Assembly (NCBI RefSeq): GCF_007990635.1
Contig: NZ_AP019846.1
Span: forward strand, 1 to 64,000
Direction of reading: 5' to 3'
From: Leptotrichia hongkongensis
Lineage (GTDB): Bacteria; Fusobacteriota; Fusobacteriia; Fusobacteriales; Leptotrichiaceae
DNA length: 64,000 bases
Shown here: piece after piece, positions 36,112-53,437 of the stretch
Numbering within the stretch: the first letter of the stretch is position 1
Layout of the letters: each line of letters starts with the position of its first letter
The notes under the pieces: generated by a model
Database searches by the model: none
Told to the model about the DNA's origin: nothing
Seen by the model: only the letters and a program-made list of their open reading frames with translations
Made by a program: the position numbers and the translations under genes

Positions 36112-36139
36112 TTGACAAAATGAAAAATCGTAGTATACT
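36112..36139 (+). promoter_or_regulatory. eut operon promoter
   Basis: TTGACA at 36112-36117 and TATACT at 36134-36139 are 16 bases apart, a near-consensus housekeeping promoter. The predicted start near 36146 falls just before the first leader hairpin. Confidence 0.75.
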
Positions 36140-36149
36140 CAAAGTGGAA

Positions 36150-36292
36150 GTTGTGTTACAATGGGGTATGCAAAACTTTTGAAAAGACTATTAAATAGTG
36201 AAAAAATCAACTAAACTAAACATATTTAAGAACAATAATATTTAAAGCAAAGGAGCTTGAGAAATTATTTATTTTTTTAGTTCCTTTTTTAT
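36150..36292 (+). promoter_or_regulatory. EutV (ANTAR) antitermination leader with dual hexaloop hairpins and terminator
   Basis: Hairpin P1 (36150-36176) has loop AATGGG and hairpin P2 (36245-36258) has loop AAAGGA. Both are hexaloops with A at position 1 and G at position 4, the signature recognised by ANTAR proteins such as EutV. P2 overlaps the 5' arm of a terminator: AAAGGAGCT (36249-36257) pairs with AGTTCCTTT (36279-36287), followed by T residues. Binding of phosphorylated EutV to P1/P2 would block the terminator and allow eut transcription. The ~68-base gap between P1 and P2 is longer than usual. P1 has one bulge and one mismatch. Confidence 0.72.
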
Positions 36293-36403
36293 TTTTGTCA
36301 ATTAATAATTTTTTATATATAGACAAATTATTGATTTTAGAAAAATTAAGGAGGTGAAAAATTCGAATATTTTGTTAATAAAACAATTTAGGAGGAAAAA
36401 ACT

Positions 36404-36688
36404 ATGGCAACATTAAATGCACTAGGAATGATTGAAACAAAAGGATTAGTAGCGGCAATAGAAGCAGCAGATGCGATGGTAAAAGCAGCAAACGTTACTC
36501 TAATCGGAAAAGAACACGTAGGTGGAGGACTAGTAACAGTATTAGTAAGAGGAGATGTAGGAGCAGTTAAGGCTGCAACAGATGCAGGAGCTGCGGCTGC
36601 CGAAAGAGTAGGAGAGTTGATTTCAATTCACGTAATCCCACGTCCACATGCTGAAGTTGAGACAATTCTGCCAAAAGGAAGAGAATAA
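36404..36688 (+). CDS. eutM: BMC hexameric shell protein EutM, copy 1
   Basis: This 94-residue single BMC-domain protein forms hexamers that tile the microcompartment facets. It has the family start [30 protein letters not shown], the pore-region turn, and [40 protein letters not shown] lies seven bases upstream of the ATG. It is the first gene of the eut operon and is nearly identical in DNA to the next gene and, in part, to the copy at 38622. Confidence 0.97.
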
Positions 36689-36758
36689 TTTTTAAGTTCT
36701 TAAAATGACATAGCATATAAACAATGTTTATAAATAAAATTTTTAGGAGGAAAAAACT

Positions 36759-37034
36759 ATGGCAACATTAAATGCACTAGGAATGATTGAAACAAAAGGA
36801 TTAGTAGCGGCAATAGAAGCAGCAGATGCGATGGTAAAAGCAGCAAACGTTACTCTAATCGGAAAAGAACACGTAGGTGGAGGACTAGTAACAGTATTAG
36901 TAAGAGGAGATGTAGGAGCAGTTAAGGCTGCAACAGATGCAGGAGCTGCGGCTGCTGAAAGAGTAGGAGAATTGATTTCAATTCATGTAATCCCACGTCC
37001 ACATGCTGAAGTTGAAACTATTTTGCCTAGATAA
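36759..37034 (+). CDS. eutM: BMC hexameric shell protein EutM, copy 2
   Basis: A 91-residue tandem duplicate of the preceding gene. The DNA is identical for about the first 195 bases, including the ribosome site, and then differs at a few silent positions before a shorter C-terminus ending LPR. Function is as for copy 1. Near-identity at the DNA level points to recent duplication or ongoing gene conversion rather than specialisation. Assembly collapse is possible in short-read data, so the copy number deserves a check. Confidence 0.96.
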
Positions 37035-37060
37035 AGGGATTTTTAGAAAGGATTTGTCAG

Positions 37061-37411
37061 ATGGAAGAAGAAAAAAAACAGAGAATGATACAGGAATATG
37101 TGCCCGGTAGACAGTTGACTCTGGCTCACATAATTGCAAATCCACAAAGAGATTTATCAAAAAAGATAGGGCTTTCCGAAAATAATACAAATGCGATAGG
37201 AATACTTACAATAACTCCAGGAGAAGCGGCAATAATTGCGGCAGATCTGGCTACTAAAAGTGCAGGAGTTGAAATAGGATTTGTTGACAGGTTTACAGGA
37301 TCGGTTGTAATAAACGGAGATGTGGGAAGCGTAGAAGCTGCTGTAAATGAAGTAGTTTCATATTTTAAAAATGTACTAAGATTTAGCATAACTCAAATAA
37401 CGAGGTCATAA
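37061..37411 (+). CDS. eutS: microcompartment shell protein EutS
   Basis: The 116-residue protein is the circularly permuted BMC protein EutS: the family signature [18 protein letters not shown] near the N-terminus is followed by [49 protein letters not shown]. EutS forms bent hexamers thought to shape shell edges and start assembly. AGAAAGGA lies upstream. It is followed two bases later by eutP. Confidence 0.95.
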
Positions 37412-37413
37412 AA

Positions 37414-37863
37414 TTGAAAAAGATACTTTTAATAGGAAAATCAATGTGCGGTAAGACAACATTGACTCAAAGAATACACGGTCTGGATATACAATATGAA
37501 AAAACACAGATGTTAAAGTATTCTGATGATATTTTAGATACGCCTGGTGAATATATGGAAAATAGAATGCTTTACAAGGCTTTGATTATAAGTTCGTATG
37601 ACTGTGATGTTATAGGAATGGTACAGGCGTGTAATGAGGAGCATAATGTTTTTCCGCCAGGATTTTCCACAGCTTTTACAAAACCTGTAATTGGAATTGT
37701 AACAAAATCTGATTTGGGTGGAGATGTGGAAAGAGCTTGTGAAATATTAGAAAATGCAGGAGCCCAAAAAGTTTTTGTTGTAAGTTCTTATGAAAATAAA
37801 GGAATTGAAGAGCTTGTCAAATATCTGGAAGATGATAACGGGCAGTTAGAAGGTGATAAATAA
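37414..37863 (+). CDS. eutP: EutP/PduV-type small GTPase-like protein
   Basis: The 149-residue protein has a P-loop LIGKSMCGKTTLTQ at about 5-18, a switch-like DTPGEYMENRMLY and a TKSDL nucleotide-base motif, as in EutP/PduV. In other bacteria this protein is reported as an acetate kinase or as a shell-associated GTPase, so its exact job is unsettled. The TTG start 37414 sits two bases after eutS. The stop directly adjoins the ATG of the next gene. Confidence 0.9.
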   Translation: MKKILLIGKSMCGKTTLTQRIHGLDIQYEKTQMLKYSDDILDTPGEYMENRMLYKALIISSYDCDVIGMVQACNEEHNVFPPGFSTAFTKPVIGIVTKSDLGGDVERACEILENAGAQKVFVVSSYENKGIEELVKYLEDDNGQLEGDK

Positions 37864-38619
37864 ATGGATTCGTACGGATATGTGGAAACACGGGGACTTG
37901 TAACGGCAATAGAGGCTGCCGATGCTGCATTGAAAGCTGCTAATGTAACATTGACAAACTATTACTATGTAAAAGGTGGAATTGTAACCATTGAAGTGAT
38001 GGGAGATGTTGCTGCTGTAAATGCCGCTGTGGATGCCGCCGTTGAAAGTGCTAAAAGACTTGGCAATTTCCTGAGTAGCAATGTCATTGCGAGAATGGCT
38101 GCTGAAACGAAGAAAATCCTAATAAGTGATAATGGAAAAAAATCAGACGAAAAGACAGTTGTCCAAGAAAAATCTGAAGAAAAGGTTATTGAAGAAACTC
38201 TAGAAGAGAAAATAGAGGAACAGTCAATAATTGATAATACAGATAAAAAAGAGACAATAGTTGAGCAAACGGAGGATATAGTAGTAAAAGAGCCTGTTCA
38301 AGAAATTTTTGAAAAAGCATCTGAAGAAATTTCAGAAAAAATTGAAACAATAGAAAAAATGGAAGATGTACCTCAAAAAGAAGAAGTAAAATCAGAATTA
38401 AATGACGGTAATCAGGAAAATAAGGAAATCTCACTAAAGAAAACTTCCAAAAAAGAAGAAGAAATAAAAAAATTGAGAAAAGAGTATCAGGATACGAAGG
38501 TAGCCGATTTAAAAACAAAGGTAAATAACCTTAAACTTGGCTATACTTGGAACCAGATAAAGACAATGCCAAAGAAAAAATTGATAGAAATTTTGATAAA
38601 AAATAATCAGGAGGAATAG
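37864..38619 (+). CDS. BMC-domain protein with long acidic tail and C-terminal helical module (EutK/PduK-like)
   Basis: Residues 1 to about 85 are a BMC domain ([27 protein letters not shown]...[20 protein letters not shown]). About 100 residues of Glu/Lys/Val/Ile low complexity follow. The last ~45 residues ([41 protein letters not shown]) form a compact basic helical module. EutK likewise joins a BMC domain to a C-terminal helical nucleic-acid-binding-like domain, but the sequence here is different and the linker much longer. The tail could tether cargo or link shell and cytoplasm. The ATG abuts the eutP stop. Confidence 0.8.
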
Positions 38620-38621
38620 AG

Positions 38622-38918
38622 ATGGCAACATTAAATGCATTAGGAATGATTGAAACTAAAGGATTGGTAGCGGCAGTAGAAGCTGCAGATGCAATGGTAA
38701 AAGCTGCAAATGTTACTTTAATTGGAAAAGAACACGTAGGTGGAGGACTAGTAACAGTATTAGTAAGAGGAGATGTAGGAGCAGTTAAGGCTGCAACAGA
38801 TGCAGGAGCTGCGGCTGCTGAAAGAGTAGGAGAATTGATTTCAATTCACGTAATTCCTCGTCCTCATACTGAAATTGAAGCTATATTGCCTAAATCAAGA
38901 GTAGTTGAGGGTGAATAA
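38622..38918 (+). CDS. eutM: BMC hexameric shell protein EutM, copy 3
   Basis: A 98-residue EutM with a slightly longer tail (KSRVVEGE). The first third and the end have diverged from copies 1 and 2 at silent sites, but about 38723-38850 is essentially identical to copy 2. This mosaic pattern indicates gene conversion. CAGGAGG lies just upstream and the gene begins two bases after the tailed BMC gene. Confidence 0.96.
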
Positions 38919-38969
38919 GAGAACTTAAGGTAATCAGATAACAGTAATTATTTATAGAAAGGACAAACT

Positions 38970-40436
38970 ATGGATAAAGATTTACAATCAATACAAGAAG
39001 TAAGAGATTTATTAAATAGCGCAAGTAAAGCATTTGAAGAATATAGTCAGTTCTCGCAAGGTCAAATTGATGAAATAGTAAGGGAAATCTGTGAAGAAGC
39101 CCAAAAACATGAAGTTGAGCTAGCAAAACTTGCTAATGAAGAAACAGGATTTGGACGTTGGGAAGACAAAGTTCTAAAAAATAGACTTGCTTCAGTAGGA
39201 GTATATGAAACTATAAAAGATCAGAAGACAAAAGGGATAATTCTTGATGACAAGGAAAAAGGGATAACTGAAATAGGAGTTCCAATGGGTATAATTGCAG
39301 CCTTGATTCCATCAACTAATCCTACTTCGTCAACAATTTATAAAATAATGATAGCATTAAAGGCAGGAAACGCAGTAATTGTAAGTCCACACCCAAATGC
39401 AAAGGACTGTATAATTAAGACTGCAGAATACTTGATAAAAGCTGCTGAAAGAAAAGGTGCTCCAAAAGGACTTATTGGAGTTATAAAAACACCTACATTA
39501 CAAGCTACACAAGAACTTATGAAACATAAAAAGACTTCATTAATTCTTGCAACAGGTGGAGAAGCAATGGTAAAAGCTGCTTACAGTTCAGGAACACCTG
39601 CAATAGGAGTAGGACCTGGAAATGGACCTGCGTTTATTGAAAGAAGTGCTGATATAAGAAAAGCCGTTAAAAGAATTATTGACAGTAAAACTTTTGATAA
39701 TGGAGTAATTTGTGCTTCAGAACAATCAATAGTTACAGAAGAAGTAATTAAAAATCAAGTAGTAGATGAACTAAAAAGACAAGGAGCATATTTCCTTAAC
39801 AAAGATGAAAGAAATAAAGTTGGAAGCATTCTTATGCGTGCAAACAACACAATGAATCCAAAAATAGTTGGAAAAACAGCTTTATATATAGCTGCAATGG
39901 CAGGAATAACAGTTCCTACAACTACAAAAGTACTTGTTTCTGAAGAAACAGAAGTTTCTCATTTAAATCCATATTCAAGAGAAAAATTATGTCCTGTATT
40001 AGGATTTTATACAGAAGAAACTTGGGAAAAAGCATGTGAAAAATGTATAGAAATTCTTGAAAATGAAGGAATTGGACATACAATGTCAATGCACACAAAT
40101 AACGAAAATATCGTAAGAGAATTTTCATTGAAAAAACCTGTGTCAAGACTACTTGTAAATACAGCTGCGGCACTTGGAGGAGTAGGAGCAACAACTAATC
40201 TTTTACCTGCATTTACATTAGGATGTGGAACTGTTGGAGGAAGTTCAACTTCTGACAATATTGGACCATTAAACCTTATAAATATTAGAAGAGTAGCTTA
40301 TGGTACAAAGGAACTGGAAGAATTGAAAGAAGAAGGTTCATGTGTAAATACATGTTCAGTTGATAATTCACGAGTGAACGAAAATGAAATTGAAGATATC
40401 ATAAGAAAAGTATTGGACGGAATTATAAAAAAATAG
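38970..40436 (+). CDS. eutE: CoA-acylating acetaldehyde dehydrogenase EutE
   Basis: EutE oxidises acetaldehyde to acetyl-CoA inside the microcompartment, recycling NAD+ and CoA. The 488-residue protein has GVPMGIIAALIPSTNPTS, LATGGEAMVKAAYSSG, the catalytic Cys in FDNGVICASEQS, and GCGTVGGSSTSDNIGP. It lacks the short N-terminal targeting helix known from Salmonella EutE. Instead it ends with an amphipathic helix ENEIEDIIRKVLDGIIKK after a flexible linker, a likely C-terminal encapsulation peptide. GAAAGGA precedes the ATG. Confidence 0.95.
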   Translation: MDKDLQSIQEVRDLLNSASKAFEEYSQFSQGQIDEIVREICEEAQKHEVELAKLANEETGFGRWEDKVLKNRLASVGVYETIKDQKTKGIILDDKEKGITEIGVPMGIIAALIPSTNPTSSTIYKIMIALKAGNAVIVSPHPNAKDCIIKTAEYLIKAAERKGAPKGLIGVIKTPTLQATQELMKHKKTSLILATGGEAMVKAAYSSGTPAIGVGPGNGPAFIERSADIRKAVKRIIDSKTFDNGVICASEQSIVTEEVIKNQVVDELKRQGAYFLNKDERNKVGSILMRANNTMNPKIVGKTALYIAAMAGITVPTTTKVLVSEETEVSHLNPYSREKLCPVLGFYTEETWEKACEKCIEILENEGIGHTMSMHTNNENIVREFSLKKPVSRLLVNTAAALGGVGATTNLLPAFTLGCGTVGGSSTSDNIGPLNLINIRRVAYGTKELEELKEEGSCVNTCSVDNSRVNENEIEDIIRKVLDGIIKK

Positions 40437-40453
40437 ATAGGGTGTGATAAAAA

Positions 40454-41239
40454 ATGCCTGTTATAACAGAAGGAATGCTTAGAAAATTAGATAAGGAAGG
40501 GCAGCTTGAAAAAGTACATATAACTGAAAAAGACATCCTTACACCGTCAGCAAGAGAGTTTTTAAATGTAAAAAAAATTGATTTTAGAATAAAAAGATCA
40601 CAGGATCAAGTTGTGAATAACGAATCAGACGATGTAAACAAAGATAAAGACTCTCAAGCAAATACTTCCGAAGAAAAAGCCCCTCCAAAAAGACAGTATA
40701 AAGACTATATTACAGGAGCAACTTATGATAAAAAGCCTGAATTTATGACTCAACTGTTTGGAAATGAACTTGTTGTAAAAAATCATAAGAGAATTGTTTT
40801 ACGAGGTAAGTTTGATATTTTGCAGGCTGAGGTAATAAGATACTGGAAAAAATATGAAAAGAATAAAAAATTGGAAAGTGACTTTGCACAGGCATATAGA
40901 TTTGTAAGAGATTTGTTTATAAGTGAAATGACTGATACACCGTTTCAGGAAAGAGATGTTCTTGGATATGATATTGATACGTTAAAAGATATAACTCATA
41001 ATACAATTAAATATTACAAAACAGGACATCTCTTTGAAATAAATGCTGATTTTGATGAAGCAGTCATTGATATAAACTGTCTTAGAGCTTTGTCAAGAGA
41101 GTGTGAAGTTGCTGCAGTAGATGCTTTTTATAAGGAAGGGAAGACGGAAAGAGTAGACATGCTAAAGGCACTAAACCGTCTGAGCAGTATATTGTACTTG
41201 ATGATGTTAAAAGCAAATAACGGAGATTATAAATCATAA
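40454..41239 (+). CDS. eutT: cobalamin adenosyltransferase EutT
   Basis: EutT makes adenosylcobalamin, the cofactor of ethanolamine ammonia-lyase, from ATP and cob(I)alamin. The 261-residue protein has the family N-terminus VITEGMLRKL and DILTPSAREFL, a Lys/Asp/Glu linker, and a helical adenosyltransferase domain (about 90-255). The double-cysteine metal motif of Salmonella EutT is not seen. Only isolated cysteines are present, as in INCLRALSRECEV, so the metal dependence may differ. It lies 17 bases after eutE. Confidence 0.88.
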   Translation: MPVITEGMLRKLDKEGQLEKVHITEKDILTPSAREFLNVKKIDFRIKRSQDQVVNNESDDVNKDKDSQANTSEEKAPPKRQYKDYITGATYDKKPEFMTQLFGNELVVKNHKRIVLRGKFDILQAEVIRYWKKYEKNKKLESDFAQAYRFVRDLFISEMTDTPFQERDVLGYDIDTLKDITHNTIKYYKTGHLFEINADFDEAVIDINCLRALSRECEVAAVDAFYKEGKTERVDMLKALNRLSSILYLMMLKANNGDYKS

Positions 41240-41259
41240 GCTCTGAATTGGGAGATATT

Positions 41260-41898
41260 ATGGACAAAAATGAATTGGAGAGAATAATAAGAGATAAGTT
41301 GCAGGAAATTCTGACAACAGAAAAAGAAGATACCTTTATGGTGGAAGCATCAGGTCGTCATGTGCATCTTACCAAAGAACACGTGGAAGCACTTTTTGGA
41401 GAAGGATATGAGTTGACACCTGTAAAAGATTTATCACAGCCTGGACAGTTTGCCGCAAAGGAAAGAGTTAGAGTAATTGGACCAAAAGGAGAATTTTCGA
41501 GTGTTGCAATATTAGGACCATGTAGAAATTTTTCTCAAGTGGAGTTATCACTTACTGACTGCCGTGAAATTGGAGTCAAAGGAGTGATAAGAGAAAGTGG
41601 AAAAATTGAAGGGACACCAGGAATACTTATAGGTGTAGGTGATAAATATATACAGTTGGATAAAGGGCTTATAGTTGCAAGAAGACATATACACATGACA
41701 AGTGAAGATGCAAAAAGATTTTCTGTAAATGATGGTGAAACTGTGAAAGTAAAAATTCATAGTGACAGACCATTAATATTTGATGATGTTTTAATAAGAG
41801 TAAAGGACAGTTTCAGATTGAGCATGCATATTGATTTTGATGAAGCAAATGCTTGTGGATATACTTCAGGAGTAACTGGAAGCATTGTAAAAGATTAA
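41260..41898 (+). CDS. eutD: PduL-type phosphotransacylase EutD
   Basis: This enzyme converts acetyl-CoA to acetyl phosphate, recycling CoA inside the shell. The 212-residue PduL-family protein has the metal-binding histidine motifs SGRHVHLT and ARRHIHMT plus LSMHIDFDEANAC, and its N-terminus MDKNELERIIRDKLQEIL is a typical encapsulation peptide. The frame extends to TTG 41248, but ATG 41260 is chosen because GGGAG at 41250-41254 is well placed. It replaces the unrelated Pta-type EutD of proteobacteria. Confidence 0.92.
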   Translation: MDKNELERIIRDKLQEILTTEKEDTFMVEASGRHVHLTKEHVEALFGEGYELTPVKDLSQPGQFAAKERVRVIGPKGEFSSVAILGPCRNFSQVELSLTDCREIGVKGVIRESGKIEGTPGILIGVGDKYIQLDKGLIVARRHIHMTSEDAKRFSVNDGETVKVKIHSDRPLIFDDVLIRVKDSFRLSMHIDFDEANACGYTSGVTGSIVKD

Positions 41899-41920
41899 AG
41901 TGAAAAGGGCAGGAGATGAA

Positions 41921-42565
41921 ATGGATACTCAAGATTTAATAGAAGTGCTTGCAAGGGAAGTATTAAAGGAAATTGCCAAAAGAGAAAATCAAAGTTTATC
42001 TGAAAATATCAAACATTCTCCTGAAAAATCAATAATAACAGCTTTTTTAGGAAATGATGAAGTCTTGAAGGATGAACTTAAAAAAGAGACATCAGTTGTA
42101 GACAACATAAAGTTGGACAGTACATGGGAAGAAATAGAAAAAAATGAAAATCAAAAGAGACTTGTTGTATCAACTCTTGGAATAAATGATTTAATTGATC
42201 TCTCACAAGGGAAAAAAAGTATCATAACAGAATTTCTTTTTAATGAAGGAGAAGTTCTGCTTGTCGAAGAAGGGCTGGAATATAAAAAATATACTAAACC
42301 TGCTGCATTAATAAGCCTTTATGATGAATATGTCAAAAAAGTTCAAGAATTTGGAATAAAGGTTGTGAAAAGAACAGAAGTAAAAAATACTTTTGATGCT
42401 AAAGAAAAATTGTATTTAAAAGGTTTGGTAACAGAAAGCAGACTTAGAAAGCTAGGATTAAAAAATCAGATACTCGAAGTTGATGCAAAATCTAAAGTAA
42501 CTTCCCTTGCGATGGATTATATAAAAGAAAATAGCATTGAACTGTGCTATGAAAGAGGACAATAA
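41921..42565 (+). CDS. ethanolamine utilisation protein of unknown function (Firmicutes-type eut family)
   Basis: The 214-residue protein matches, by position and size, an uncharacterised family found in eut loci of non-proteobacteria between pduL and eutN. It begins with an amphipathic helix (DTQDLIEVLAREVLKEIAKRE) like the encapsulation peptides of its neighbours, so it is probably cargo. The middle contains hydrophobic strands such as KSIITEFLFNEGEVLLVEEGLEYKKY, and the C-terminus ends in SLAMDYIKENSIEL. Start ATG 41921 is set by AGGAG at 41911; GTG 41900 is an upstream alternative. No enzymatic motif recognised. Confidence 0.75.
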   Translation: MDTQDLIEVLAREVLKEIAKRENQSLSENIKHSPEKSIITAFLGNDEVLKDELKKETSVVDNIKLDSTWEEIEKNENQKRLVVSTLGINDLIDLSQGKKSIITEFLFNEGEVLLVEEGLEYKKYTKPAALISLYDEYVKKVQEFGIKVVKRTEVKNTFDAKEKLYLKGLVTESRLRKLGLKNQILEVDAKSKVTSLAMDYIKENSIELCYERGQ

Positions 42566-42566
42566 C

Positions 42567-42836
42567 ATGTTAATTGGAAAAGTTGTAGATAATGTCTGGG
42601 CAACAAGAAAGGATGAAAAGCTAAGAGGACTAAAACTTATGGTAGTTGAAGTGGAAGGTACAGGCGAAGGTCATGGAAGCAGAAAAATGGTGGCAGCCGA
42701 TTATATTGGTGCTGGACAGGGCGATAAGGTAATAATCGTTACTGGAAGTTCTGCAAGACATGTATTTGATGCTGAAACTCCTGTAGATGCGACTATTGTA
42801 GGAATAATAGACAGTTTGGAATCGGAAAAGGAGTAA
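42567..42836 (+). CDS. eutN: microcompartment vertex protein EutN
   Basis: EutN/CcmL proteins form pentamers that cap shell vertices. The 89-residue protein has MLIGKVVDNVWATRKDEKLRGLKLMVVEV, the loop YIGAGQGDKVIIVTGSSARHVF, and ends in the DATIVGIIDSLE strand-helix. The true start is ATG 42567, one base after the stop of the preceding gene and preceded by GAGGA at 42555; an upstream in-frame ATG at 42537 overlaps the previous gene and is not believed. Confidence 0.95.
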   Translation: MLIGKVVDNVWATRKDEKLRGLKLMVVEVEGTGEGHGSRKMVAADYIGAGQGDKVIIVTGSSARHVFDAETPVDATIVGIIDSLESEKE

Positions 42837-42840
42837 AAAA

Positions 42841-43143
42841 ATGGGAAAAAGATTGATAACAGTAAAAAATCTTTTTGAATATATTCAAGATAAGGAACTG
42901 GTGGTTCAGGCTGATATGATTATTACTCCCGGAGCAAAAGACATGATCAGAGAACAAGGAATAGAAGTGAGATACGAAAAGACTTGTGGCGTGTCAAATT
43001 CTGCATCGGGAAATGAAATCAGAAAAAATACAAGAGATTGTGATGATTTGGAAAAGAAAGTAATTGAAATACTTGTAAAAAATTATAAAATTACAGATTC
43101 TGACACAATCCGAAAAATATTATCCAAAATAAAGGAATTATAG
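42841..43143 (+). CDS. small EutQ-N-terminal-like protein
   Basis: The 100-residue protein has LITVKNLFEYIQDKELVVQADMIITPGAKDMIREQGIEVRYE, resembling the N-terminal segment of proteobacterial EutQ and of EutT (the I-T-P-x-A-x pattern is shared with EutT at 40454). Its C-terminus (LEKKVIEILVKNYKITDSDTIRKILSKIKEL) is amphipathic and may be a targeting helix. The cupin part of EutQ is encoded separately at 53438. It follows eutN by four bases. Function unknown; it may be a split-off EutQ domain or a small assembly factor. Confidence 0.65.
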   Translation: MGKRLITVKNLFEYIQDKELVVQADMIITPGAKDMIREQGIEVRYEKTCGVSNSASGNEIRKNTRDCDDLEKKVIEILVKNYKITDSDTIRKILSKIKEL

Positions 43144-43261
43144 TAAGATTACTTTGGAATAAAATTTAAAAGTAATAACTATTTTCTCAACTCTAGACTT
43201 TTTAGATTTATTAGTAAAATGTTACGGAGATTGAGAGCACAATAGAAAGGAAGTGGATTTA

Positions 43262-44380
43262 ATGGGTTTATTTCAAATAAAGCCGGATATTCATTACGGA
43301 GCTAATTCTTTGGATATATTAAGAACAATGGAAATCGAAAAAGTATTTTTAGTAACAGACGAGAATATGGTCAAACTAAAAGTAGTGAATAGAATAACAA
43401 ATATCTTAAAATCAAGAGGAATAGATGCTAAAATATATTCGGATGTTAAACCAGATCCCACAGATGAAGAAATTATAAAGGGTATGCTTGAGCTTAGCGC
43501 TTATGATCCTGACTGTATAATAGCACTAGGAGGAGGATCACCAATAGATGCCTGTAAATCAATGATTTATTTTACAAATAAAATAAAAAGGGCAATGGGA
43601 GAATATAAAAAGCCTAAATTTATTGCAGTGCCAACAACAAGTGGAACAGGATCAGAAGTAACATCTTATGCAGTTGTTACAACTCAAAGTAAAAAAATAC
43701 CGCTGAGTGATAGTGAAATGCTGCCTGATATAGCAATTTTAAATCCAGAGTTTATAAAAACTCTTCCGCCATCAATAATTGCGGATACAGGAATGGATGT
43801 TTTGACACACGCTATAGAAGCTTATGTTTCAAGATCTAGAAACTTGTTTACAAATACACTTGCCATAGGAGCAATAAAAACTGTTTTTGCTGATTTAGTA
43901 AGCAACTTTGAAAATCCTGAACTTGAAAGAGAAAGAATTGATTTACAAATTGCTTCATGTATGGCAGGAGTAGCATTTAGCAATGCAGGACTGGGAATAA
44001 ACCACAGTATAGCACATTCGCTAGGCGCAAGATTTCATAAACCGCATGGACGGCTTAATGCGATAATAATGCCAAAAGTTATAGAGTTTAATGCACAAAA
44101 TAAGAATGCGGCTAGATATTATCGTGAAATTGCTGAAGCATTGGGATTTGCACCTAAGGAAGATGCAGAAGGAGTACAAATTTTAGCAAAAGCTATTAAA
44201 ATGCGAGCTGCTAAAATGTCAATACCAGGTAGCTTAAGAGAACTTGGTATACCTGAAGATCAATATTTTTCAGAAATGGAAAGCGTAATTGATCAGATAG
44301 AAAATGATATGTGTACTGGGGAAAACCCAAGAAGATTTAGCAGAATAGAAATGAAGCAGCTACTGACAGATTTATATTAA
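43262..44380 (+). CDS. eutG: iron-containing alcohol dehydrogenase EutG
   Basis: EutG reduces acetaldehyde to ethanol and regenerates NAD+. The 372-residue protein has the NAD-binding ALGGGSPIDACKSM, PTTSGTGSEVTSYAV, and the metal-ligand region DTGMDVLTHAIEAYVS with NHSIAHSLGARFHKPHGRLNAI. Start ATG 43262 follows AAAGGAAG at 43246-43253; GTG 43253 lies inside the ribosome site. The 118-base gap before it can form a long-range TCTCAA/TTGAGA stem but no clear EutV-type terminator. Confidence 0.93.
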   Translation: MGLFQIKPDIHYGANSLDILRTMEIEKVFLVTDENMVKLKVVNRITNILKSRGIDAKIYSDVKPDPTDEEIIKGMLELSAYDPDCIIALGGGSPIDACKSMIYFTNKIKRAMGEYKKPKFIAVPTTSGTGSEVTSYAVVTTQSKKIPLSDSEMLPDIAILNPEFIKTLPPSIIADTGMDVLTHAIEAYVSRSRNLFTNTLAIGAIKTVFADLVSNFENPELERERIDLQIASCMAGVAFSNAGLGINHSIAHSLGARFHKPHGRLNAIIMPKVIEFNAQNKNAARYYREIAEALGFAPKEDAEGVQILAKAIKMRAAKMSIPGSLRELGIPEDQYFSEMESVIDQIENDMCTGENPRRFSRIEMKQLLTDLY

Positions 44381-44401
44381 ATTCGAGGAAAAGGAAAAAA
44401 A

Positions 44402-44980
44402 ATGAGAAAAATAATAGTTGTAGATGATGAGCCGATAACAAGAATGGATATATGTGAAATATTGAAAGAAGCAAATTATGATGTGGTTGCTCAGGCGGGA
44501 GACGGATTTGATGCAATTGAACAGAGCAGAAAACATAAACCTGACTTTGTCATAATGGATGTCAAAATGCCGATACTTGATGGACTGAAAGCAGCAAAAG
44601 TCATAACGGAGGAAAAATTGTCTAGAGGTATTGTTTTACTCACAGCCTATTCCAATAAGGAATTTATAGAAGAAGCCAAGAATATAGGAATAATAGGATA
44701 TATAGTAAAACCCATTGATGAAAAATCCTTTATTCCTAATCTTGAAATCATATTTAATAAGCAAGAAGAATTTGAAAAGCTGGAAAAAAAATATTTAAAA
44801 ACAAGTCAGAAGCTGGAGGATAGAAAAAAAATTGATATTGCCAAAAGTATTTTGATGAAAACAAGAAACTTTACTGAAAATGAGGCATATGAATACATAA
44901 GAACGCTTAGTATGAATAAAAGATGTGACATGGGAAAAATAGCAGATATTATAATTTTATCTGGAGATGAAGATGCTTAG
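44402..44980 (+). CDS. eutV: EutV response regulator with ANTAR RNA-binding domain
   Basis: EutV is the RNA-binding antiterminator of eut genes. The 192-residue protein has a receiver domain (DDE at residues 8-10, phosphoacceptor D53 in IMDVKMP, conserved T in LLTAYS, K in IVKPID). A coiled-coil linker leads to an ANTAR domain (about 130-185, KIDIAKSILMKTRNFTENEAYEYIRTLSM). The dual-hexaloop leader at 36150-36292 is its likely target. It overlaps eutW by a few codons. Confidence 0.95.
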   Translation: MRKIIVVDDEPITRMDICEILKEANYDVVAQAGDGFDAIEQSRKHKPDFVIMDVKMPILDGLKAAKVITEEKLSRGIVLLTAYSNKEFIEEAKNIGIIGYIVKPIDEKSFIPNLEIIFNKQEEFEKLEKKYLKTSQKLEDRKKIDIAKSILMKTRNFTENEAYEYIRTLSMNKRCDMGKIADIIILSGDEDA

Positions 44981-46376
44981 AACGATATGTAGACAATATA
45001 CGCAACTTTCAAATAAAGATATTGAAAAGCTGGAAAAAATATGTGAAGGGCTGCCTGTAATGAGTAAACTTCTAAAGGCAGACGTGTTTATAGACTGCAT
45101 GACAGAAAATAGAGATACAGCAATTGTAGTTGCTGAGGCAAAACCAAGAATAGGATCGAGCTATACTCAAAGTGTAGTAGGAAAATTTGCCTATAGGAAG
45201 AATGAACCAGCTGTACTTAGAACTCTTGAAACTGGGCATCCATCAAGAGATTATAAGGCATTGACGCAAGAAAATAAAAGTGTAACGCAAAATGTAGTAC
45301 CCATAAGAAGTGATGAACAGGATGGAAAAATAATAGCCGTTCTTATAGTTGAAGAAGGAATGAATGAGGAAAATATCGGCAAGGGGCTGAGTTTTTTGAA
45401 CAATGCAACTGATGATATACTTATGAGTTCTGTTGGAATGATGCGGGAGCGGAAAATTATTGACTATATAAATGATGGAATTATAATCTTTAATGAGGAA
45501 GGCATGTGCATATATGCTAATTCCAGAGCAAAATATGTTTACAGAAAAATTGGCTATAAGGATTCTTTCCTTGGAGAAAAATTTGATAATATTGTAATTG
45601 ATAATGTTGAATTTGAAGATGTGCTAAGTGGAAAAGTAAATAAAAGATCTGATATAAATATATCAAATATGGTTTTAAGCCTTGAATACATATTAGTAAA
45701 GGAAACAAATAACGTTAAAAATGTAGTCTTATTTATAAAAGATATTACCGAAATTAAAGTGAAGGAAAAGGAATTAGTCCTAAAATCTGTTGCAATAAAG
45801 GAAATACACCATCGAGTAAAGAACAATTTGCAGACAATAGCAAGCTTACTTAGAATACAGGCTAGAAAGACTGATGATAAAGCTGTAAAGGCTGCATTTA
45901 GTGATAGTATAAATAGAATTTTAAGTATTTCAGTTACTCATGAACTGCTTGCACAGAATGGACTTGATGAACTTGAAATAAAGGAAGTTATAAATAAGAT
46001 TCTGAAAAATTCAGTGAGAGAGAATTTAGACGGGCATCTGAAGCTTAAAATAGATGTCATTGGAGACAACTTTGAAATAAGTTCAGATAAGGCAACAACA
46101 ATAGCCTTGATAGTAAACGAACTTGTAGAAAATTGTATAAAGCATGCCTTTAAAGGAAAAACTAAAGGACAAATAACGATAAGGGTAAAAAGAGGGGAAA
46201 TGAAATCTCGTGTTTCCATAAGTGATAATGGAATAGGAATGGATGAAAGGGATTTTGAAAAAGGAAGCATTGGATTGCAAATAGTTAAAAGTCTTGTGAA
46301 GGAGAAACTATATGGGAATCTGGATATAAAGACTGGCAATAAAGGAACTGAGATTAGTTTTGGATTTGAAAATTGA
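44973..46376 (+). CDS. eutW: EutW sensor histidine kinase
   Basis: EutW autophosphorylates in response to ethanolamine and activates EutV. The 467-residue protein lacks membrane helices, so it senses inside the cell. The N-terminal ~145 residues form the sensor domain typical of this family, followed by a PAS-like segment (IIDYINDGIIIFNEEGMCIYANSRAKY). A HisKA_2 motif carries the phosphorylated His (IKEIHHRVKNNLQTIASLLRIQAR), and an HATPase domain follows (VNELVENCIKHAF, SDNGIGM). ATG 44973 follows GGAG and overlaps the eutV end; ATG 44967 is an alternative. Confidence 0.93.
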   Translation: MLRTICRQYTQLSNKDIEKLEKICEGLPVMSKLLKADVFIDCMTENRDTAIVVAEAKPRIGSSYTQSVVGKFAYRKNEPAVLRTLETGHPSRDYKALTQENKSVTQNVVPIRSDEQDGKIIAVLIVEEGMNEENIGKGLSFLNNATDDILMSSVGMMRERKIIDYINDGIIIFNEEGMCIYANSRAKYVYRKIGYKDSFLGEKFDNIVIDNVEFEDVLSGKVNKRSDINISNMVLSLEYILVKETNNVKNVVLFIKDITEIKVKEKELVLKSVAIKEIHHRVKNNLQTIASLLRIQARKTDDKAVKAAFSDSINRILSISVTHELLAQNGLDELEIKEVINKILKNSVRENLDGHLKLKIDVIGDNFEISSDKATTIALIVNELVENCIKHAFKGKTKGQITIRVKRGEMKSRVSISDNGIGMDERDFEKGSIGLQIVKSLVKEKLYGNLDIKTGNKGTEISFGFEN

Positions 46377-46407
46377 TAGATTTATGTAAAGACAAAGGAG
46401 TCTTGAG

Positions 46408-47838
46408 ATGACAGAAGAAATACTAAGTGTGGGGATAGACATTGGGACTTCCACAACACAGCTTATTTTTTCAAAGATATATATTGAAAATAGGGGAAGC
46501 GCATTTACAGCTCCTCAAATAAAAATAATAGGAAAAGAAGTTGTTTATAGAAGTGAAATTTATATTACCCCATTAGAAAATGAAACAAAAATAGATGCAA
46601 AAAAAGTTAAGGAAATAATAGAATCTGAATACAAAAAAGCAAATATACAATATAAGGATGTTTCAACAGGAGCTGTAATAATAACAGGAGATACTGCAAG
46701 AAAGGAAAACGCTAAGGAAGTATTACAGATACTTAGTGGAATGGCAGGAGATTTTGTTGTAGCAACTGCAGGTCCTGATCTTGAAAGCATTATTGCTGGA
46801 AAAGGTTCGGGAGCCTATGGATATTCTGAAGAAAAAAATACAAGTATCGTAAACTTTGATATAGGAGGAGGTACTACAAATAATGTTGTCTTTAATAGGG
46901 GAGAAGTGGAAGACACTACTTGCCTTGATATAGGAGGACGACTTATAAAATTTGATGAAAACAGGAATACACGTTATATTTTCAAAAAAATGTACGATAT
47001 TGCTGAAGATGTGAATGTAAAGCTGGAACTAGGAAAACCTATAAGTGAATCTGATTTGAGAAAAATAACAAGAAGAATGGCACAACTTATTTTTGAAAGT
47101 GTAGAAATTTTTCCAAAAACAGAACTGTATCATAAAATCGTAACATATAATGACTTCAGAAAGCACAATAAAGACATTCAACATTACTCATTTACTGGAG
47201 GAGTTGCAGATTTCATCTATGGACGTGTAGAAAAAGATTTGTACAAGTATAATGACATTGGAGTAGTTCTTGGTGAAGAAATTGTAAAAGTTCTAAAAGA
47301 ATTGAATATAGAGCCTTTGAAGTTAAGTGAAACAATAGGAGCGACAGTAGTTGGAGCAGGAAGCCATACTACAGAAATAAGCGGAAGCACAATTACTTAT
47401 ACTGAAGGAATCTTCCCAATAAAAAATATTCCTGTATTAAAAATGTCTGAGTCAGATGAGAATTTGCCTGTTAATGAACTGGGAAAAGTGATAGAAGGTA
47501 AGCTAGACTGGTTTAGTTCTGAAAATGAACTCGAAAATGTGGCTCTTGCATTTAAAGGAAAGCATAATATGGCATATAACGAAATAATGGAATTATCTTT
47601 AGTAATTTCAGATATTATCAAAAGAAAGCATGACAAAAAACATCCTGTAATCGTCATAGTTGAAAATGATATGGCAAAAGTCCTTGGACAATGTATGAAA
47701 CTGGAGCTTGCTGATTATGACATAATCTGTATAGATAGTGTTAAAGTAAGAGACGGAGACTACATTGATATAGGAGCGCCGCTAGGAAACGGAAATGTTT
47801 TGCCTGTCGTAATAAAAACATTGGTATTCAGTTATTAA
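46408..47838 (+). CDS. eutA: ethanolamine ammonia-lyase reactivating factor EutA
   Basis: EutA is an ATP-dependent chaperone that exchanges damaged cobalamin in EutBC. The 476-residue protein has actin-like ATPase signatures [17 protein letters not shown] and [15 protein letters not shown], and ends with [26 protein letters not shown] as expected for the family. CAAAGGAG precedes the ATG. It directly precedes eutB, the usual order. Confidence 0.95.
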
Positions 47839-47868
47839 ATTAATAAATTTTAGAGAGGTGGCAATAAG

Positions 47869-49233
47869 ATGGTATTAAAAACAAAATTATTCGGTCATAC
47901 GTATGAATTTAAATCTGTAAAAGATGTACAGAATAAGGCAAGTGAATTTAGATCAGGAGATGAACTTGCGGGAGTAAGTGCAAGTACAGCGGAAGAAAGA
48001 GTTGCCGCAAAAGCTGTGTTGGCTGAGTTAACATTGGCAGACTTAAGAAACAATCCTGCAGTACCTTATGAAGAAGATGAAGTTACAAGAATTATCCAGG
48101 ATGCTGTAAATGAAAAGATTTATGGAGAAATAAAAAACTGGACTGTAAGTGAATTAAGAGAATGGATTTTGGATTCTCATACAAGTGGTGATGACATAAA
48201 GAGAATCAGTAAAGGTCTTACAAGTGAAATGGTAGCAGCAGTTGCTAAACTTATGAGTAATATGGATCTTATTCAAGGAGCAAGCAAAATAAGAATTAAA
48301 AAATTCTGTAATACTGAAATAGGTGGAGAAGGAATACTTGCAACAAGATTGCAGCCTAACCATACAACAGATGATCCAGATGGAATTATGCTTTCAACTT
48401 ATGAAGGGCTTAGCTTTGGGCAAGGAGATGCTTTGCTAGGATTAAACCCAGTTGATGACAGTGTTGACAGTGTTATGAGAGTGTTGCATAGATTCCACGA
48501 AATAAAAACTAAATGGCAAATTCCTACTCAAATATGTGTATTAGCTCACGTAACTACACAAATGGAAGCAATTAGAAGAGGAGCACCTACAGACTTAGTT
48601 TTCCAAAGTATTGCAGGATCTGAAAAAGGAAATGAAGCATTTGGAATAAATGGAACAATGATTCAGGAAGCAAGAGATTTGGCATTAAAACATGGAACAG
48701 CGACAGGACCTAACGTAATGTACTTTGAAACAGGACAAGGTTCAGAATTGTCATCAGATGCTCACCATGGTTGCGATCAGGTTACAATGGAAGCAAGATG
48801 TTACGGATTTGCGAAAAAATTTGATCCATTTATTGTAAATACGGTTGTTGGATTTATCGGACCAGAATATTTGTATAACAGTAAACAAGTAATAAGAGCT
48901 GGACTTGAAGATCATTTTATGGGTAAACTTACTGGAATCTCAATGGGAGTTGACGCTTGCTACACTAACCACATGAAAGCAGATCAAAATGATATTGAAA
49001 ACTTGAAAGTATTATTAACAGTAGCAGGATGTAACTACTTTATGGCTATTCCTGCAGGAGATGACATAATGCTTAACTATCAAACATCTTCTTATCATGA
49101 TGATGCTACATTAAGAGAACTATGTAACAGAAGACCTATAAAACCTTTTGAACAATGGTTAGAAAAAATGGGAATAATGAAAGATGGAAAACTTACAGAT
49201 AGAGCCGGAGACGCTTCAATTTTCTTAAAATAG
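47869..49233 (+). CDS. eutB: ethanolamine ammonia-lyase large subunit EutB
   Basis: With EutC and adenosylcobalamin, EutB cleaves ethanolamine to acetaldehyde and ammonia. The 454-residue protein is full length. Recognisable parts are LANADL-type ELTLADLRNNPAVPYEEDEVTR, TRLQPNHTTDDPDGIMLSTYEGLSFGQGDALLGLNPVDDS, YFETGQGSELSSDAHHGCDQVTMEARCYG, and GVDACYTNHMKADQND. GAGAGGTGG lies upstream. The cofactor requirement links this operon to the B12-riboswitch-controlled transporter downstream. Confidence 0.97.
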   Translation: MVLKTKLFGHTYEFKSVKDVQNKASEFRSGDELAGVSASTAEERVAAKAVLAELTLADLRNNPAVPYEEDEVTRIIQDAVNEKIYGEIKNWTVSELREWILDSHTSGDDIKRISKGLTSEMVAAVAKLMSNMDLIQGASKIRIKKFCNTEIGGEGILATRLQPNHTTDDPDGIMLSTYEGLSFGQGDALLGLNPVDDSVDSVMRVLHRFHEIKTKWQIPTQICVLAHVTTQMEAIRRGAPTDLVFQSIAGSEKGNEAFGINGTMIQEARDLALKHGTATGPNVMYFETGQGSELSSDAHHGCDQVTMEARCYGFAKKFDPFIVNTVVGFIGPEYLYNSKQVIRAGLEDHFMGKLTGISMGVDACYTNHMKADQNDIENLKVLLTVAGCNYFMAIPAGDDIMLNYQTSSYHDDATLRELCNRRPIKPFEQWLEKMGIMKDGKLTDRAGDASIFLK

Positions 49234-49246
49234 GGAGGAAAAATCA

Positions 49247-50173
49247 ATGTTATCAGAAAGAGAACTAAAAGACGTAATTGAAAAAATAATAGGTGAAATG
49301 AAAATAGACGAACCATCAACAACTGTTGAAGAAAAAGCACCAGTTGTCAGTACAAGCTCAGTTTATATCGAAAGCGGAGATGAGCCACGTGAAAATCCAC
49401 ATATTGTAAACGGAGAAGTAAGAGATATTGGAAAAATAAACATAAAAGATCAAATGCTTGTGGATAATCCTGAAGACAGAGAAGAATATATGAAGTTAAA
49501 ACAAAAAACATCTGCAAGACTTGGAATTGGAAGAGCTGGAACAAGAATGAGAACAGAAGTTTTGTTAAGATTAAGAGCAGACCACGCTGCAGCGCAAGAT
49601 GCCGTGTTCAATGACGTGCCTACAGAATTTCTTGATGAACTTGGATTGTTTGAAGTTACTACTGAATGTGAAAGCAGAGACCAATATATCACACGTCCTG
49701 ATTTAGGAAGAAGAATTTCTGAAGAAGGAATAAAGACAATAGAAGAAAAATGTAAAAAAAATCCAACAGTTCAAATATTATTGTCAGATGGATTAAGTTC
49801 AACTGCAGTTGAAGCAAATGCAAAAAATATAATACCTGCATTGTTAAATGGGCTTAAAGGATATGGAATTGAGACAGGAACACCATTTTTTATCAAATAT
49901 GGAAGAGTTGGAGCAGGAGATCATGTTGGAGAAATTTTAAATGCTGATGTAGTTTGTATATTAATAGGAGAACGTCCTGGACTTACAACTGCAGAAAGTA
50001 TGAGTGCCTACATTACTTACAAGGCTCGTCCTGGAATTTCTGAAGCAAAAAGAACAGTTGTTTCAAATATTCATAAGGATGGAACTCCATCTTCAGAAGC
50101 AGGAGCTCACGTTGCTACATTAATTAAGAAAGTAATTGATGCAAAAGCAAGTGGACAAGATTTAAAATTATAA
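49247..50173 (+). CDS. eutC: ethanolamine ammonia-lyase small subunit EutC
   Basis: EutC binds the cobalamin with EutB. The 308-residue protein has the conserved SARLGIGRAGTRMRTEVLLRLRADHAAAQDAV and VQILLSDGLSSTAVEANAKN, with IGERPGLTTAESMSAYITY near the end. The N-terminal ~60 residues are an extension: an amphipathic helix ERELKDVIEKIIGEMKI followed by a flexible linker, the recognised way EutBC is targeted to the shell. GGGAGGAAAAATC precedes the ATG. Confidence 0.97.
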   Translation: MLSERELKDVIEKIIGEMKIDEPSTTVEEKAPVVSTSSVYIESGDEPRENPHIVNGEVRDIGKINIKDQMLVDNPEDREEYMKLKQKTSARLGIGRAGTRMRTEVLLRLRADHAAAQDAVFNDVPTEFLDELGLFEVTTECESRDQYITRPDLGRRISEEGIKTIEEKCKKNPTVQILLSDGLSSTAVEANAKNIIPALLNGLKGYGIETGTPFFIKYGRVGAGDHVGEILNADVVCILIGERPGLTTAESMSAYITYKARPGISEAKRTVVSNIHKDGTPSSEAGAHVATLIKKVIDAKASGQDLKL

Positions 50174-50217
50174 ATTAACTTAATAAAAAATAAAAATTAA
50201 AAACTTTAGGAGGAACA

Positions 50218-50871
50218 ATGAAAGGCGATAGATTAAAAGCAAATGTACTAGCTGTAAGATTAATTCCAAATGTAGATAATGATATGGCTAAAGAGCTGGA
50301 ATTACCTGAAGGACATAGAAGTATAGGAATTATAACAGCAGATTGTGATGATGTTACATATACTGCACTTGATGAAGCTACAAAAAAAGCTGTGGTTGAT
50401 GTGGTTTACGGAAAATCATTCTATGGTGGAGCTGCAAATGCGAATACGAAACTTGCAGGAGAAGTAATAGGGATATTGTCAGGACCTACTCCTGCGGAAG
50501 TAAAAAGTGGACTAGCTGCAGCAGTTGACTTTATTGAAAATGAAGGAGCATTCATAAGTGCAAATGATGATGATAGCATTGCATATTATGCACATTGTGT
50601 ATCAAGAACAGGAAGTTATTTATCAAAAACAGCAGGAATTGCAGAAGGGGAATCATTAGCATACCTAATAGCACCTCCGCTTGAAGCAATGTACGCTTTA
50701 GATGTTGCATTAAAAGCAGCAGATGTAAGTTTAGTTGCATTCTTTGGACCACCTTCAGAAACAAACTTTGGTGGAGCACTTTTAACAGGAAGTCAGTCAG
50801 CATGTAAAGCTGCGTGCGATGCTTTCGCTGAAGCAGTAAAATCTGTGGCAGATAATCCATTAAATTATTAA
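50218..50871 (+). CDS. eutL: tandem-BMC shell protein EutL
   Basis: EutL is a trimer of fused BMC domains with a large gated pore. The 217-residue protein starts KGDRLKANVLAVRLIPNVDNDMAKELELPEGHRSIGI and repeats the domain in its second half (AMYALDVALKAADVSLVAFFGPPSETNFGGALLTG). Length and features match the family. TTAGGAGG lies just before the ATG. Confidence 0.96.
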   Translation: MKGDRLKANVLAVRLIPNVDNDMAKELELPEGHRSIGIITADCDDVTYTALDEATKKAVVDVVYGKSFYGGAANANTKLAGEVIGILSGPTPAEVKSGLAAAVDFIENEGAFISANDDDSIAYYAHCVSRTGSYLSKTAGIAEGESLAYLIAPPLEAMYALDVALKAADVSLVAFFGPPSETNFGGALLTGSQSACKAACDAFAEAVKSVADNPLNY

Positions 50872-50893
50872 TTGAAGAACCATTGTTATAAAC

Positions 50894-50960
50894 TAGAATT
50901 GCCTTGTAAATTTATAGCATTAAATGTTTAAATAAAAAATATTTTTATTGGGCAATTCTA
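50894..50960 (+). terminator. possible attenuator between eutL and eutH
   Basis: A perfect 10-bp stem TAGAATTGCC (50894-50903) with GGCAATTCTA (50951-50960) encloses a 47-base AT-rich loop containing its own AATAAAAA/TTTTTATT stem. A short T-run follows. It could limit read-through into eutH or stabilise the upstream message. Loop shape does not show the EutV A1/G4 signature. The rest of the 50872-51133 gap is AT-rich without other features. Confidence 0.4.
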
Positions 50961-52231: not shown

Positions 52232-52266
52232 AAATATGAAAAAATGATTATCTGAGGAGATGAAAG

Positions 52267-53412: not shown

Positions 53413-53437
53413 TTGAAAGATTTTGGAGGAAGAAATA

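What the first reader, a model, noticed from the sequence alone, without database searches (positions are those of the whole stretch)
36112..36292. EutV antitermination leader with P1 and P2 hexaloops far apart
Two hairpins have the A1/G4 hexaloops (AATGGG, AAAGGA) that ANTAR proteins recognise, and P2 shares its 3' half with the 5' arm of a terminator. This is the known EutV logic. The two hairpins are about 68 bases apart instead of nearly adjacent, and P1 is at the very 5' end of the message. The site may represent an unusual spacing class, or a closer P1 may have been missed.
Basis: partly seen in the sequence, partly recalled or inferred. Interest (0 to 1): 0.7.

Follow-up and report, generated by a model that had tools for sequence, protein, structure and literature searches.

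The report
Long-range EutV antiterminator leader
This looks like a genuine ethanolamine-operon RNA switch of the known EutV type, but its two protein-binding hairpins sit about 60-76 bases apart (over 100 in a sister genus) where the studied system needs 5-12, so the accepted spacing rule seems not to hold in this bacterial family.

Summary
The leader of an ethanolamine (eut) microcompartment operon in a Leptotrichia-genus genome has a promoter, P1 (hexaloop AATGGG, 36160-36165), an A-rich linker, P2 (AAAGGA, 36249-36254) and a terminator whose 5' arm is the P2 loop and 3' stem. The operon encodes EutV, the genome's only ANTAR match. P1, P2 and long spacing recur in all 7 genus members with EutV (loop-to-loop 77-89 nt) and in 4 of 4 genomes of a sister genus (125-133). 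Of 13 genus members, the site is in exactly the 7 with EutV and EutB. P1 keeps the closing pairs known to matter and covaries. No separate closer A1/G4 hairpin of 3 bp or more lies in the seven linkers. The nearest P1 in 27 other complete sites (16 in a second Fusobacteriota family, 11 in Bacillota) is at 19-28. Published work finds that a 14-nt linker, or +20 nt, drastically reduces or abolishes antitermination. Most likely EutV loads on P1 and stays tethered until P2 emerges; that step is inferred. Two unexpected leads: a P1-like hairpin inside eutW where a P2/terminator follows it in Fusobacteriota, and a EutV-type hairpin over the eutA ribosome site in 7 of 7 Leptotrichia. New variant of a known kind.

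The parts
36112..36139 (+). promoter: TTGACA (36112-36117), 16 nt, TATACT (36134-36139); predicted +1 at 36146
   Evidence: read; TTGACA...TATACT found within 140 nt upstream of P1 in 6 of 7 Leptotrichia leaders and 149 nt upstream of the P1 loop in the seventh, G008. Start site inferred
36146..36180 (+). P1 hairpin, hexaloop AATGGG at 36160-36165, closing pairs A-U and C-G; the stem has a bulge and a lower part that not all relatives share
   Evidence: fold; P1 in 11 of 11 leaders; covariation
36181..36233 (+). A-rich linker with no A1/G4 hairpin of 3 bp or more and no conserved fold
36234..36269 (+). possible extended P2: AATAAT (36234-36239) pairing with ATTATT (36264-36269) below the P2 core; invariant, so unproven
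   Evidence: appears in 6 of 7 Leptotrichia constrained folds (not G002) and in neither sister-genus fold
36245..36258 (+). P2 core AAGC[AAAGGA]GCTT, hexaloop 36249-36254
   Evidence: GC[AAAGGR]GC in 11 of 11 leaders
36249..36297 (+). intrinsic terminator: arms 36249-36265 and 36271-36287, then U-rich tract; its 5' arm is the P2 loop and 3' stem
36404..53899 (+). eut microcompartment operon behind the leader (BMC shell genes, EutP, acetaldehyde dehydrogenase, EutT-like, EutD, EutV, EutW, EutA, EutB, EutC, EutH, EutQ)
   Evidence: co-transcription inferred from spacing and strand
44402..44980 (+). EutV, response regulator with ANTAR domain
   Evidence: ANTAR match at 44801-44956, the only one in the genome; matches E. 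faecalis EutV chain 6wsh, E 3.3e-56
44967..46376 (+). EutW, sensor histidine kinase; its G1 box here is DNGIG with GAT and no P1-like hairpin (2-bp stem)
46389..46404 (+). AAGAC[AAAGGA]GTCTT: EutV-type hexaloop hairpin with AC/GT closing over the ribosome-binding site of eutA; second candidate EutV target
   Evidence: 7 of 7 Leptotrichia, stems 4-6 bp; stem almost invariant, so no covariation test

Best explanation
A EutV (ANTAR) antitermination leader of a long-linker class. Without ethanolamine, RNA polymerase reads P1 and the linker, then stops at the terminator. When EutW phosphorylates EutV, the EutV dimer binds P1 as soon as it emerges and stays tethered by the flexible A-rich linker. 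It then captures, or is handed to, P2 as P2 emerges, holding P2's short stem and loop and so denying the terminator its 5' arm; the whole operon, eutVW included, is read. Shown: both hairpins in sequence, the overlap of P2 with the terminator, conservation, P1 covariation, co-occurrence with EutV, and the long spacing. Inferred: binding, phosphorylation, tethering and the order of events, from E. faecalis work.
For: P1 and P2 with A1/G4 hexaloops in 11 of 11 leaders of two genera; loop-to-loop 77-89 (7) and 125-133 (4). P1 closing A-U/C-G pairs invariant in 10 of 10 distinct rows and 21 of 21 with the near-P1s of a second family added; these are the pairs shown to be sequence-specific in E. 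faecalis (PMC3369931). Covariation: 10 cells changed on both sides, 0 of 500 shuffles; combined set score 0.613 against 0.188, 0 of 500. In the genus the site is in 7 of 13 genomes, exactly those with EutV and EutB. EutV keeps R142, K143, E160, Y164, M172, N173, R175 of the E. faecalis RNA contacts and is of ordinary length. Leptotrichia linkers are no more folded than shuffled ones, so a flexible tether fits better than a compact fold. EutV binds each isolated hairpin with similar affinity and a successive-binding model has been proposed (PMC8934654).
Against: In E. faecalis a 14-nt linker drastically cut induction and +20 nt abolished antitermination in vitro; nothing here explains why this family would escape that. 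Two of nine contact residues differ (K147I, R177D), though Bacillota protein L213, with canonical sites, has the same two. In the covariation tests two of five measures did not exceed the shuffles (69 and 151 of 500; 384 and 91 of 500), and related sequences inflate such tests. In sister-genus leader G023 the unconstrained fold already holds P2 rather than the terminator. G014 has EutV at 82% identity but no site that I could see. Three genus members without EutV have weak partial ANTAR matches. No binding or expression data.
Confidence: 0.72

Rival explanations
1. P2 alone is the antiterminator; EutV binds P2 directly and P1 is not needed for the switch (for example it only protects the 5' end, or stores EutV).
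For: Isolated P2 is bound by EutV in E. faecalis (PMC8934654). In Leptotrichia a longer P2 (AATAAT/ATTATT lower stem) could make P2 more self-sufficient. The second site in the sister genus has P2 and terminator but no near P1.
Against: P1 keeps the EutV loop signature and closing pairs while its stem covaries. In G008 P1 is far from the 5' end yet keeps its distance to P2, which does not fit 5'-end protection. The lower-stem pairing is invariant and not seen in the sister genus.
Confidence: 0.13
2. The linker folds so that P1 and P2 are brought to the canonical distance.
For: In the sister genus AGGTTA before P1 and TAACCT in the linker recur in 4 of 4 leaders and could pair around P1.
Against: That pairing never varies, so it is untested. 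In Leptotrichia the mean path between P1 and P2 in sampled structures (21-45 steps) lies within two standard deviations of 20 shuffled linkers in all 7 and above their mean in 6 of 7 (window 45.3 against 33.1, sd 6.7); it stays well over 5-12.
Confidence: 0.1
3. A closer P1 with a non-canonical loop exists and the distal P1 is incidental.
For: One genome of the second family (G035) has a near P1 with G instead of A at loop position 1, so loops can vary.
Against: No separate A1/G4 hexaloop of 3 bp or more in the 7 Leptotrichia linkers; chance of the distal P1 0-1.6% per leader, yet present in 11 of 11. I did not scan systematically for other loop types.
Confidence: 0.05

Closest known systems
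EutV dual-hairpin antiterminators of Enterococcus faecalis eutP, eutG, eutS, eutA (Ramesh et al. 2012, PMC3369931; PMC8934654 of 2022)
   Same: two hexaloop hairpins with A1 and G4, A-U/C-G closing pairs of P1, P2 exclusive with the terminator, EutV and EutW present
   Different: linker 5-12 nt there; 60-76 nt in Leptotrichia and 109-115 nt in the two sister-genus leaders measured
ANTAR sites of a second Fusobacteriota family and of Bacillota
   Same: same P1 and P2 signatures and terminator overlap
   Different: nearest P1 at loop-to-loop 19-28 in all 27 complete sites found; most of those in the second family lie after eutW, not in the operon leader
Actinobacterial ANTAR RNAs (PMC8164766)
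   Same: dual hexaloop hairpins
   Different: curated with a linker of 2-25 nt, so long-linker sites would not pass that filter
EutX / AdoCbl-II riboswitch decoy of E. faecalis (recalled; not read here)
   Same: an AdoCbl-II riboswitch lies near this eut operon (59345-59452, minus)
   Different: no P1/P2 pair follows it

Membership tests
EutV/ANTAR dual-hairpin antiterminator | two hairpins with hexaloops, A at 1 and G at 4 | tested here: met
   11 of 11 leaders
EutV/ANTAR dual-hairpin antiterminator | P1 closing pairs A-U, C-G conserved | tested here: met
   10 of 10 distinct rows
EutV/ANTAR dual-hairpin antiterminator | P2 overlaps and excludes an intrinsic terminator | tested here: met
   weakest in sister-genus leader G023, where the fold favours P2
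EutV/ANTAR dual-hairpin antiterminator | short linker (5-12 nt in E. faecalis; 14 nt or +20 nt fails). The 2012 search model itself allowed a variable linker, so this is an experimental constraint rather than part of the definition | tested here: not met
   60-76 nt in Leptotrichia, 109-115 in two sister-genus leaders; papers
EutV/ANTAR dual-hairpin antiterminator | a cognate ANTAR response regulator in the genome, with its kinase | tested here: met
   one ANTAR match in the genome; histidine kinase adjacent
EutV/ANTAR dual-hairpin antiterminator | RNA-contact residues of EutV kept | tested here: inconclusive
   7 of 9 kept; K147I and R177D
EutV/ANTAR dual-hairpin antiterminator | EutV binds this RNA and read-through depends on ethanolamine | not testable with these tools
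   needs the bench

The most novel reading that the evidence does not exclude
In Fusobacteriota P1 is a long-range loading site for EutV whose distance from P2 is free from about 20 to 260 nt, and one such P1 is hidden inside the coding sequence of the sensor kinase eutW. The codons for its ATP-site motif DNGVG (GAC AAY GGN GTY GGN) form a 6-7 bp P1-like hairpin in 21 of 21 EutW genes from the second family (17) and the sister genus (4), where a P2/terminator follows eutW (seen in 20; the contig of G062 ends too soon), and in 0 of 9 EutW genes without a P2/terminator behind them. In the sister genus, where no near P1 exists, it would be the only P1 for that site, 157-259 nt upstream. In Leptotrichia, which lacks both, a single EutV-type hairpin instead covers the eutA ribosome-binding site.
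Probability: 0.3. Interest if true: 0.82.

Novelty: new variant of a known kind. Interest (0 to 1): 0.62.

Why it matters
The strict P1-P2 spacing is a pillar of the current model of how an EutV dimer passes from one hairpin to the other. A natural class that keeps both hairpins but spaces them 5 to 20 times further apart suggests the rule is not general and gives a ready test of simultaneous, successive or tethered binding. It also means that surveys limited to short linkers (2-25 nt) would miss such sites.

Tried and rejected
Rfam: nothing at gathering scores in the leader and only five chance-level matches at E up to 10. Similarity search of the leader in plasmids: no match. A missed closer P1 of the A1/G4 type: rejected. 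Compact linker: no support in Leptotrichia. The changed EutV residues as a mark of the long class: rejected, because Bacillota locus L213 with canonical spacing has the same K147I/R177D. EutX-like decoy at the AdoCbl-II riboswitch: no P1/P2 there.

The P1-like hairpin in eutW I first dismissed as a by-product of the DNGVG codons, then reopened. Its Asp codon is GAC in 20 of 21 genes (18 of 19 in the codon alignment), against at most 6 of 17 at the other 10 near-invariant Asp columns of EutV and EutW in the same genomes and 3 of 20 in other histidine kinases (30 best-scoring loci given, 10 without a readable motif; 1 of 20 had an A1/G4 hairpin of 6 bp or more, 3 of 20 of 5 or more). Against it: four Bacillota EutW genes with a P2/terminator behind or near them (L195, L196, L197, L199) use GAT and form no such hairpin; and in Leptotrichia another Asp column is GAC in 8 of 9 by inheritance alone.

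Rows dropped or not counted: 4 of the 22 second-family genomes with EutV were not fetched (G037, G039, G042, G045). G062's contig ends before the site. G049 has EutV and a plain terminator after eutW but no P2. G035's near P1 has G at loop position 1 (spacing 22) and is not in the 16. L137 has one further weak P2-like hit without P1, and G048 (L131) an extra 3-bp P1-like hit at 103 besides its near P1 at 28. L092-L094 gave no site. Nine further Bacillota P2/terminator hits had no P1 by my scan, one of them with an imperfect near P1 at 20 nt (L199); 23 of the 36 Bacillota loci had no P2/terminator hit. Weak A1/G4 hairpins without AC/GT closing at 66-200 nt in three Bacillota loci were not counted.

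Full report
Setting. The window lies in a 2.28 Mb genome. From 36404 to 53899 runs an ethanolamine microcompartment operon with shell genes, EutP, acetaldehyde dehydrogenase, a EutT-like protein, EutD, EutV, EutW, EutA, EutB, EutC, EutH and EutQ. EutV (44402-44980) is the only ANTAR match in the genome. It aligns over nearly its whole length with E. faecalis EutV, chain 6wsh (E 3.3e-56).

The leader. Promoter TTGACA/TATACT puts +1 near 36146 (inferred). P1 folds at 36146-36180 with hexaloop AAUGGG. P2 is AAGC[AAAGGA]GCTT at 36245-36258. The terminator 36249-36287 takes the P2 loop and 3' stem as its 5' arm, so the two exclude each other. The energy of the whole stretch is not unusual (z -0.67); conservation carries the argument. 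No other P2 with a terminator exists in the window on either strand, and a P2/terminator pattern matches once in the genome.

Conservation. Of 13 genomes of the genus, 7 have EutB, the same 7 have a EutV match at E 1e-40 or better, and the same 7 have the P2/terminator pattern. All 7 have P1 (TTAC[AAYGRN]GTA) at loop-to-loop distances 89, 89, 87, 83, 83, 77 and 88 nt. In the sister genus g9 (one contig is labelled Sebaldella sp. and one only Fusobacteriales), all 4 genomes have a leader with P1 TCTGAC[AATGGA]GTTRGA and P2 GAGC[AAAGGG]GCTC at 125, 133, 132 and 133 nt. In G008 an insertion moves P1 to 121 nt after the -10 box while the distance to P2 stays 83, so P1's partner seems to be P2 and not the 5' end. 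G014, another genus of the family, has EutV (82%) but no site that I could find.

Covariation and chance. On the 11 leader P1s (10 distinct rows, 24 columns without gaps, A1), the closing A-U and C-G pairs never change. The third pair is U-A in 7 rows and G-U in 3. Ten cells change on both sides (0 of 500 shuffles), and 78.8% of cells pair against 68.7% (1 of 500); the number of pairs with changes (69 of 500) and of pair types (151 of 500) is not remarkable. The stem below is imperfect: three of the outer pairs fail in 4 of 10 rows. With the near-P1s of the second family added (26 rows, 21 distinct), pairing is 89.8% against 65.3% and the score 0.613 against 0.188 (0 of 500 each; the same two other measures, 384 and 91 of 500). 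A P1 of this grade arises in 0-16 of 1000 shuffles of the 156 nt upstream.

Spacing elsewhere. In the second family of the order (f2; I take it to be Fusobacteriaceae, from memory), 22 genomes have EutV and I fetched 18. Fifteen have complete sites with AC[ANNGNN]GT as P1: 16 sites, nearest P1 at loop-to-loop 21-28, 15 of them just after eutW. G035 has the same spacing with a G1 loop, G049 has no P2 and G062 is cut by the contig end. Among 398 Bacillota genomes, 34 had EutV-like matches at 36 places; I fetched all 36. Eight loci hold 11 complete sites at 19-27. So 27 sites have their nearest P1 at 19-28 and 11 leaders at 77-133, with nothing between.

Against published rules. In E. faecalis the linker is 5-12 nt; 3 or 14 nt drastically reduced induction (PMC3369931: outline, passages, section 7 and the first part of section 10). 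A 20-nt extension abolished antitermination in vitro, and the authors propose that the dimer binds P1 first and then moves to P2 (PMC8934654, passages). The actinobacterial survey kept linkers of 2-25 nt (PMC8164766, passages). Searches for EutV, ANTAR, hairpin and antitermination, ANTAR, hexaloop, linker (20 of 1,940 listed), Leptotrichia with ethanolamine (10 of 26 listed), ANTAR with Fusobacteri and eutV, ANTAR with eutW and coding region and ANTAR, antitermination, long linker (8 of 101 listed) showed no title or abstract that I recognised as describing this. A 2024 F. nucleatum paper says that whether this mechanism operates there remains to be examined (PMC11796344, passages). The library holds open-licence papers only.

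How it could work. Leptotrichia linkers are A-rich and fold no more than shuffled ones, so a flexible tether is the simplest picture: EutV loads on P1 early and waits for P2. The sister genus has an invariant AGGTTA/TAACCT pair that might fold the linker. The EutV proteins have ordinary length and keep seven of nine contact residues in Leptotrichia; the two changes also occur in a Bacillota protein with canonical spacing. What lets this family use a long linker is therefore unknown.

An unexpected lead in eutW. The eutW codons for DNGVG form CTGAC[AAYGGN]GTYGG, a 6-7 bp hairpin with the EutV loop and closing pairs, in 21 of 21 EutW genes examined from the second family (17) and the sister genus (4) (in one, G048, the closing pair is U-G). 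The Asp codon is GAC in 20 of 21, while local GAC use is 6-29%, the other near-invariant Asp columns reach at most 6 of 17, and other histidine kinases show 3 of 20. The sixth pair is standard in 16 of 16 distinct rows with five pair types, coupling the first base of one codon with the wobble base of another; cells paired 95.5% against 86.8% (0 of 500), while two other measures are not remarkable (395 and 106 of 500). The 9 EutW genes without a P2/terminator behind them (7 Leptotrichia, G014, G049) all use GAT, and their stems are 2-5 bp. For the Leptotrichia genes and G014 I checked 100 nt before to 260 nt after the eutW stop and found no P2 with a terminator. In the sister genus the P2/terminator after eutW has no near P1, and the eutW hairpin lies 255-259 nt (3 genomes) or 157 nt (G023) upstream. 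Against this being a general EutV element: Bacillota EutW genes with such a site lack it, and related sequences inflate shuffle tests. I give this reading about 0.3.

A second lead at eutA. In the checking round I found that 7 of 7 Leptotrichia carry AAGAC[AAAGGA]GTCTT (one with AAAGGG and 4 bp) just before eutA, at 46389-46404 in the window: a hexaloop with A1, G4 and AC/GT closing whose loop is the ribosome-binding site. It stands where the relatives have P1, P2 and a terminator. Only 0-2 of 2000 simple shuffles give such a hairpin, but the ribosome site is conserved for its own reason and the stem hardly varies, so this is a lead, not a finding. A published note that some ANTAR sites overlap ribosome sites (PMC3369931) makes it plausible.

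Noticed in passing
46389-46404: EutV-type hexaloop hairpin over the eutA ribosome-binding site, in 7 of 7 Leptotrichia; possible translational EutV target.
   Followed up: partly
L085:15966-15989, L124:10733-10756 and 19 further loci: P1-like hairpin inside the eutW coding sequence at the DNGVG motif, with an unusual conserved GAC codon; absent in Leptotrichia eutW. Motif scans also report it as a distant P1.
   Followed up: partly
36348-36357: A strong ribosome-binding-like AAGGAGGTGA about 40 nt before the real one; AGGAGGTGA recurs in 7 of 7 Leptotrichia leaders with no clear start codon after it.
   Followed up: partly
L085, L087, L088, L090, about +2000 from eutV: Sister-genus second site: P2 and terminator after eutW with no near P1; in L085, L087 and L088 a GTGTTTT...AAAACAC stem stands just before P2.
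   Followed up: partly
59345-59452 (minus): AdoCbl-II riboswitch upstream of an ABC transporter operon with a family-5 binding protein, about 5 kb beyond the eut operon; no ANTAR hairpin pair follows it.
   Followed up: partly
L084 and L086 (G026, G024): 256-257 aa frames with two ANTAR matches each that also match EutV over residues 3-187: possible receiver-ANTAR-ANTAR proteins.
   Followed up: no
L157 (G021): P2-like loop with a terminator very like the Leptotrichia one, before a gene that looks like an M20 peptidase (my reading of the translation, not searched), in a genome with no ANTAR match.
   Followed up: no
L034, between promoter and P1 (G008): Insertion of about 100 nt holding a near-perfect inverted repeat AAACCTC...GAGGTTT, which may be a small palindromic element.
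   Followed up: no
36404-37034: The first two shell genes of the operon begin almost identically, which looks like a tandem duplication.
   Followed up: no
L082 (G014): EutV at 82% identity but no P1/P2 or terminator site found in the operon leader or after eutW; regulation may have changed.
   Followed up: partly
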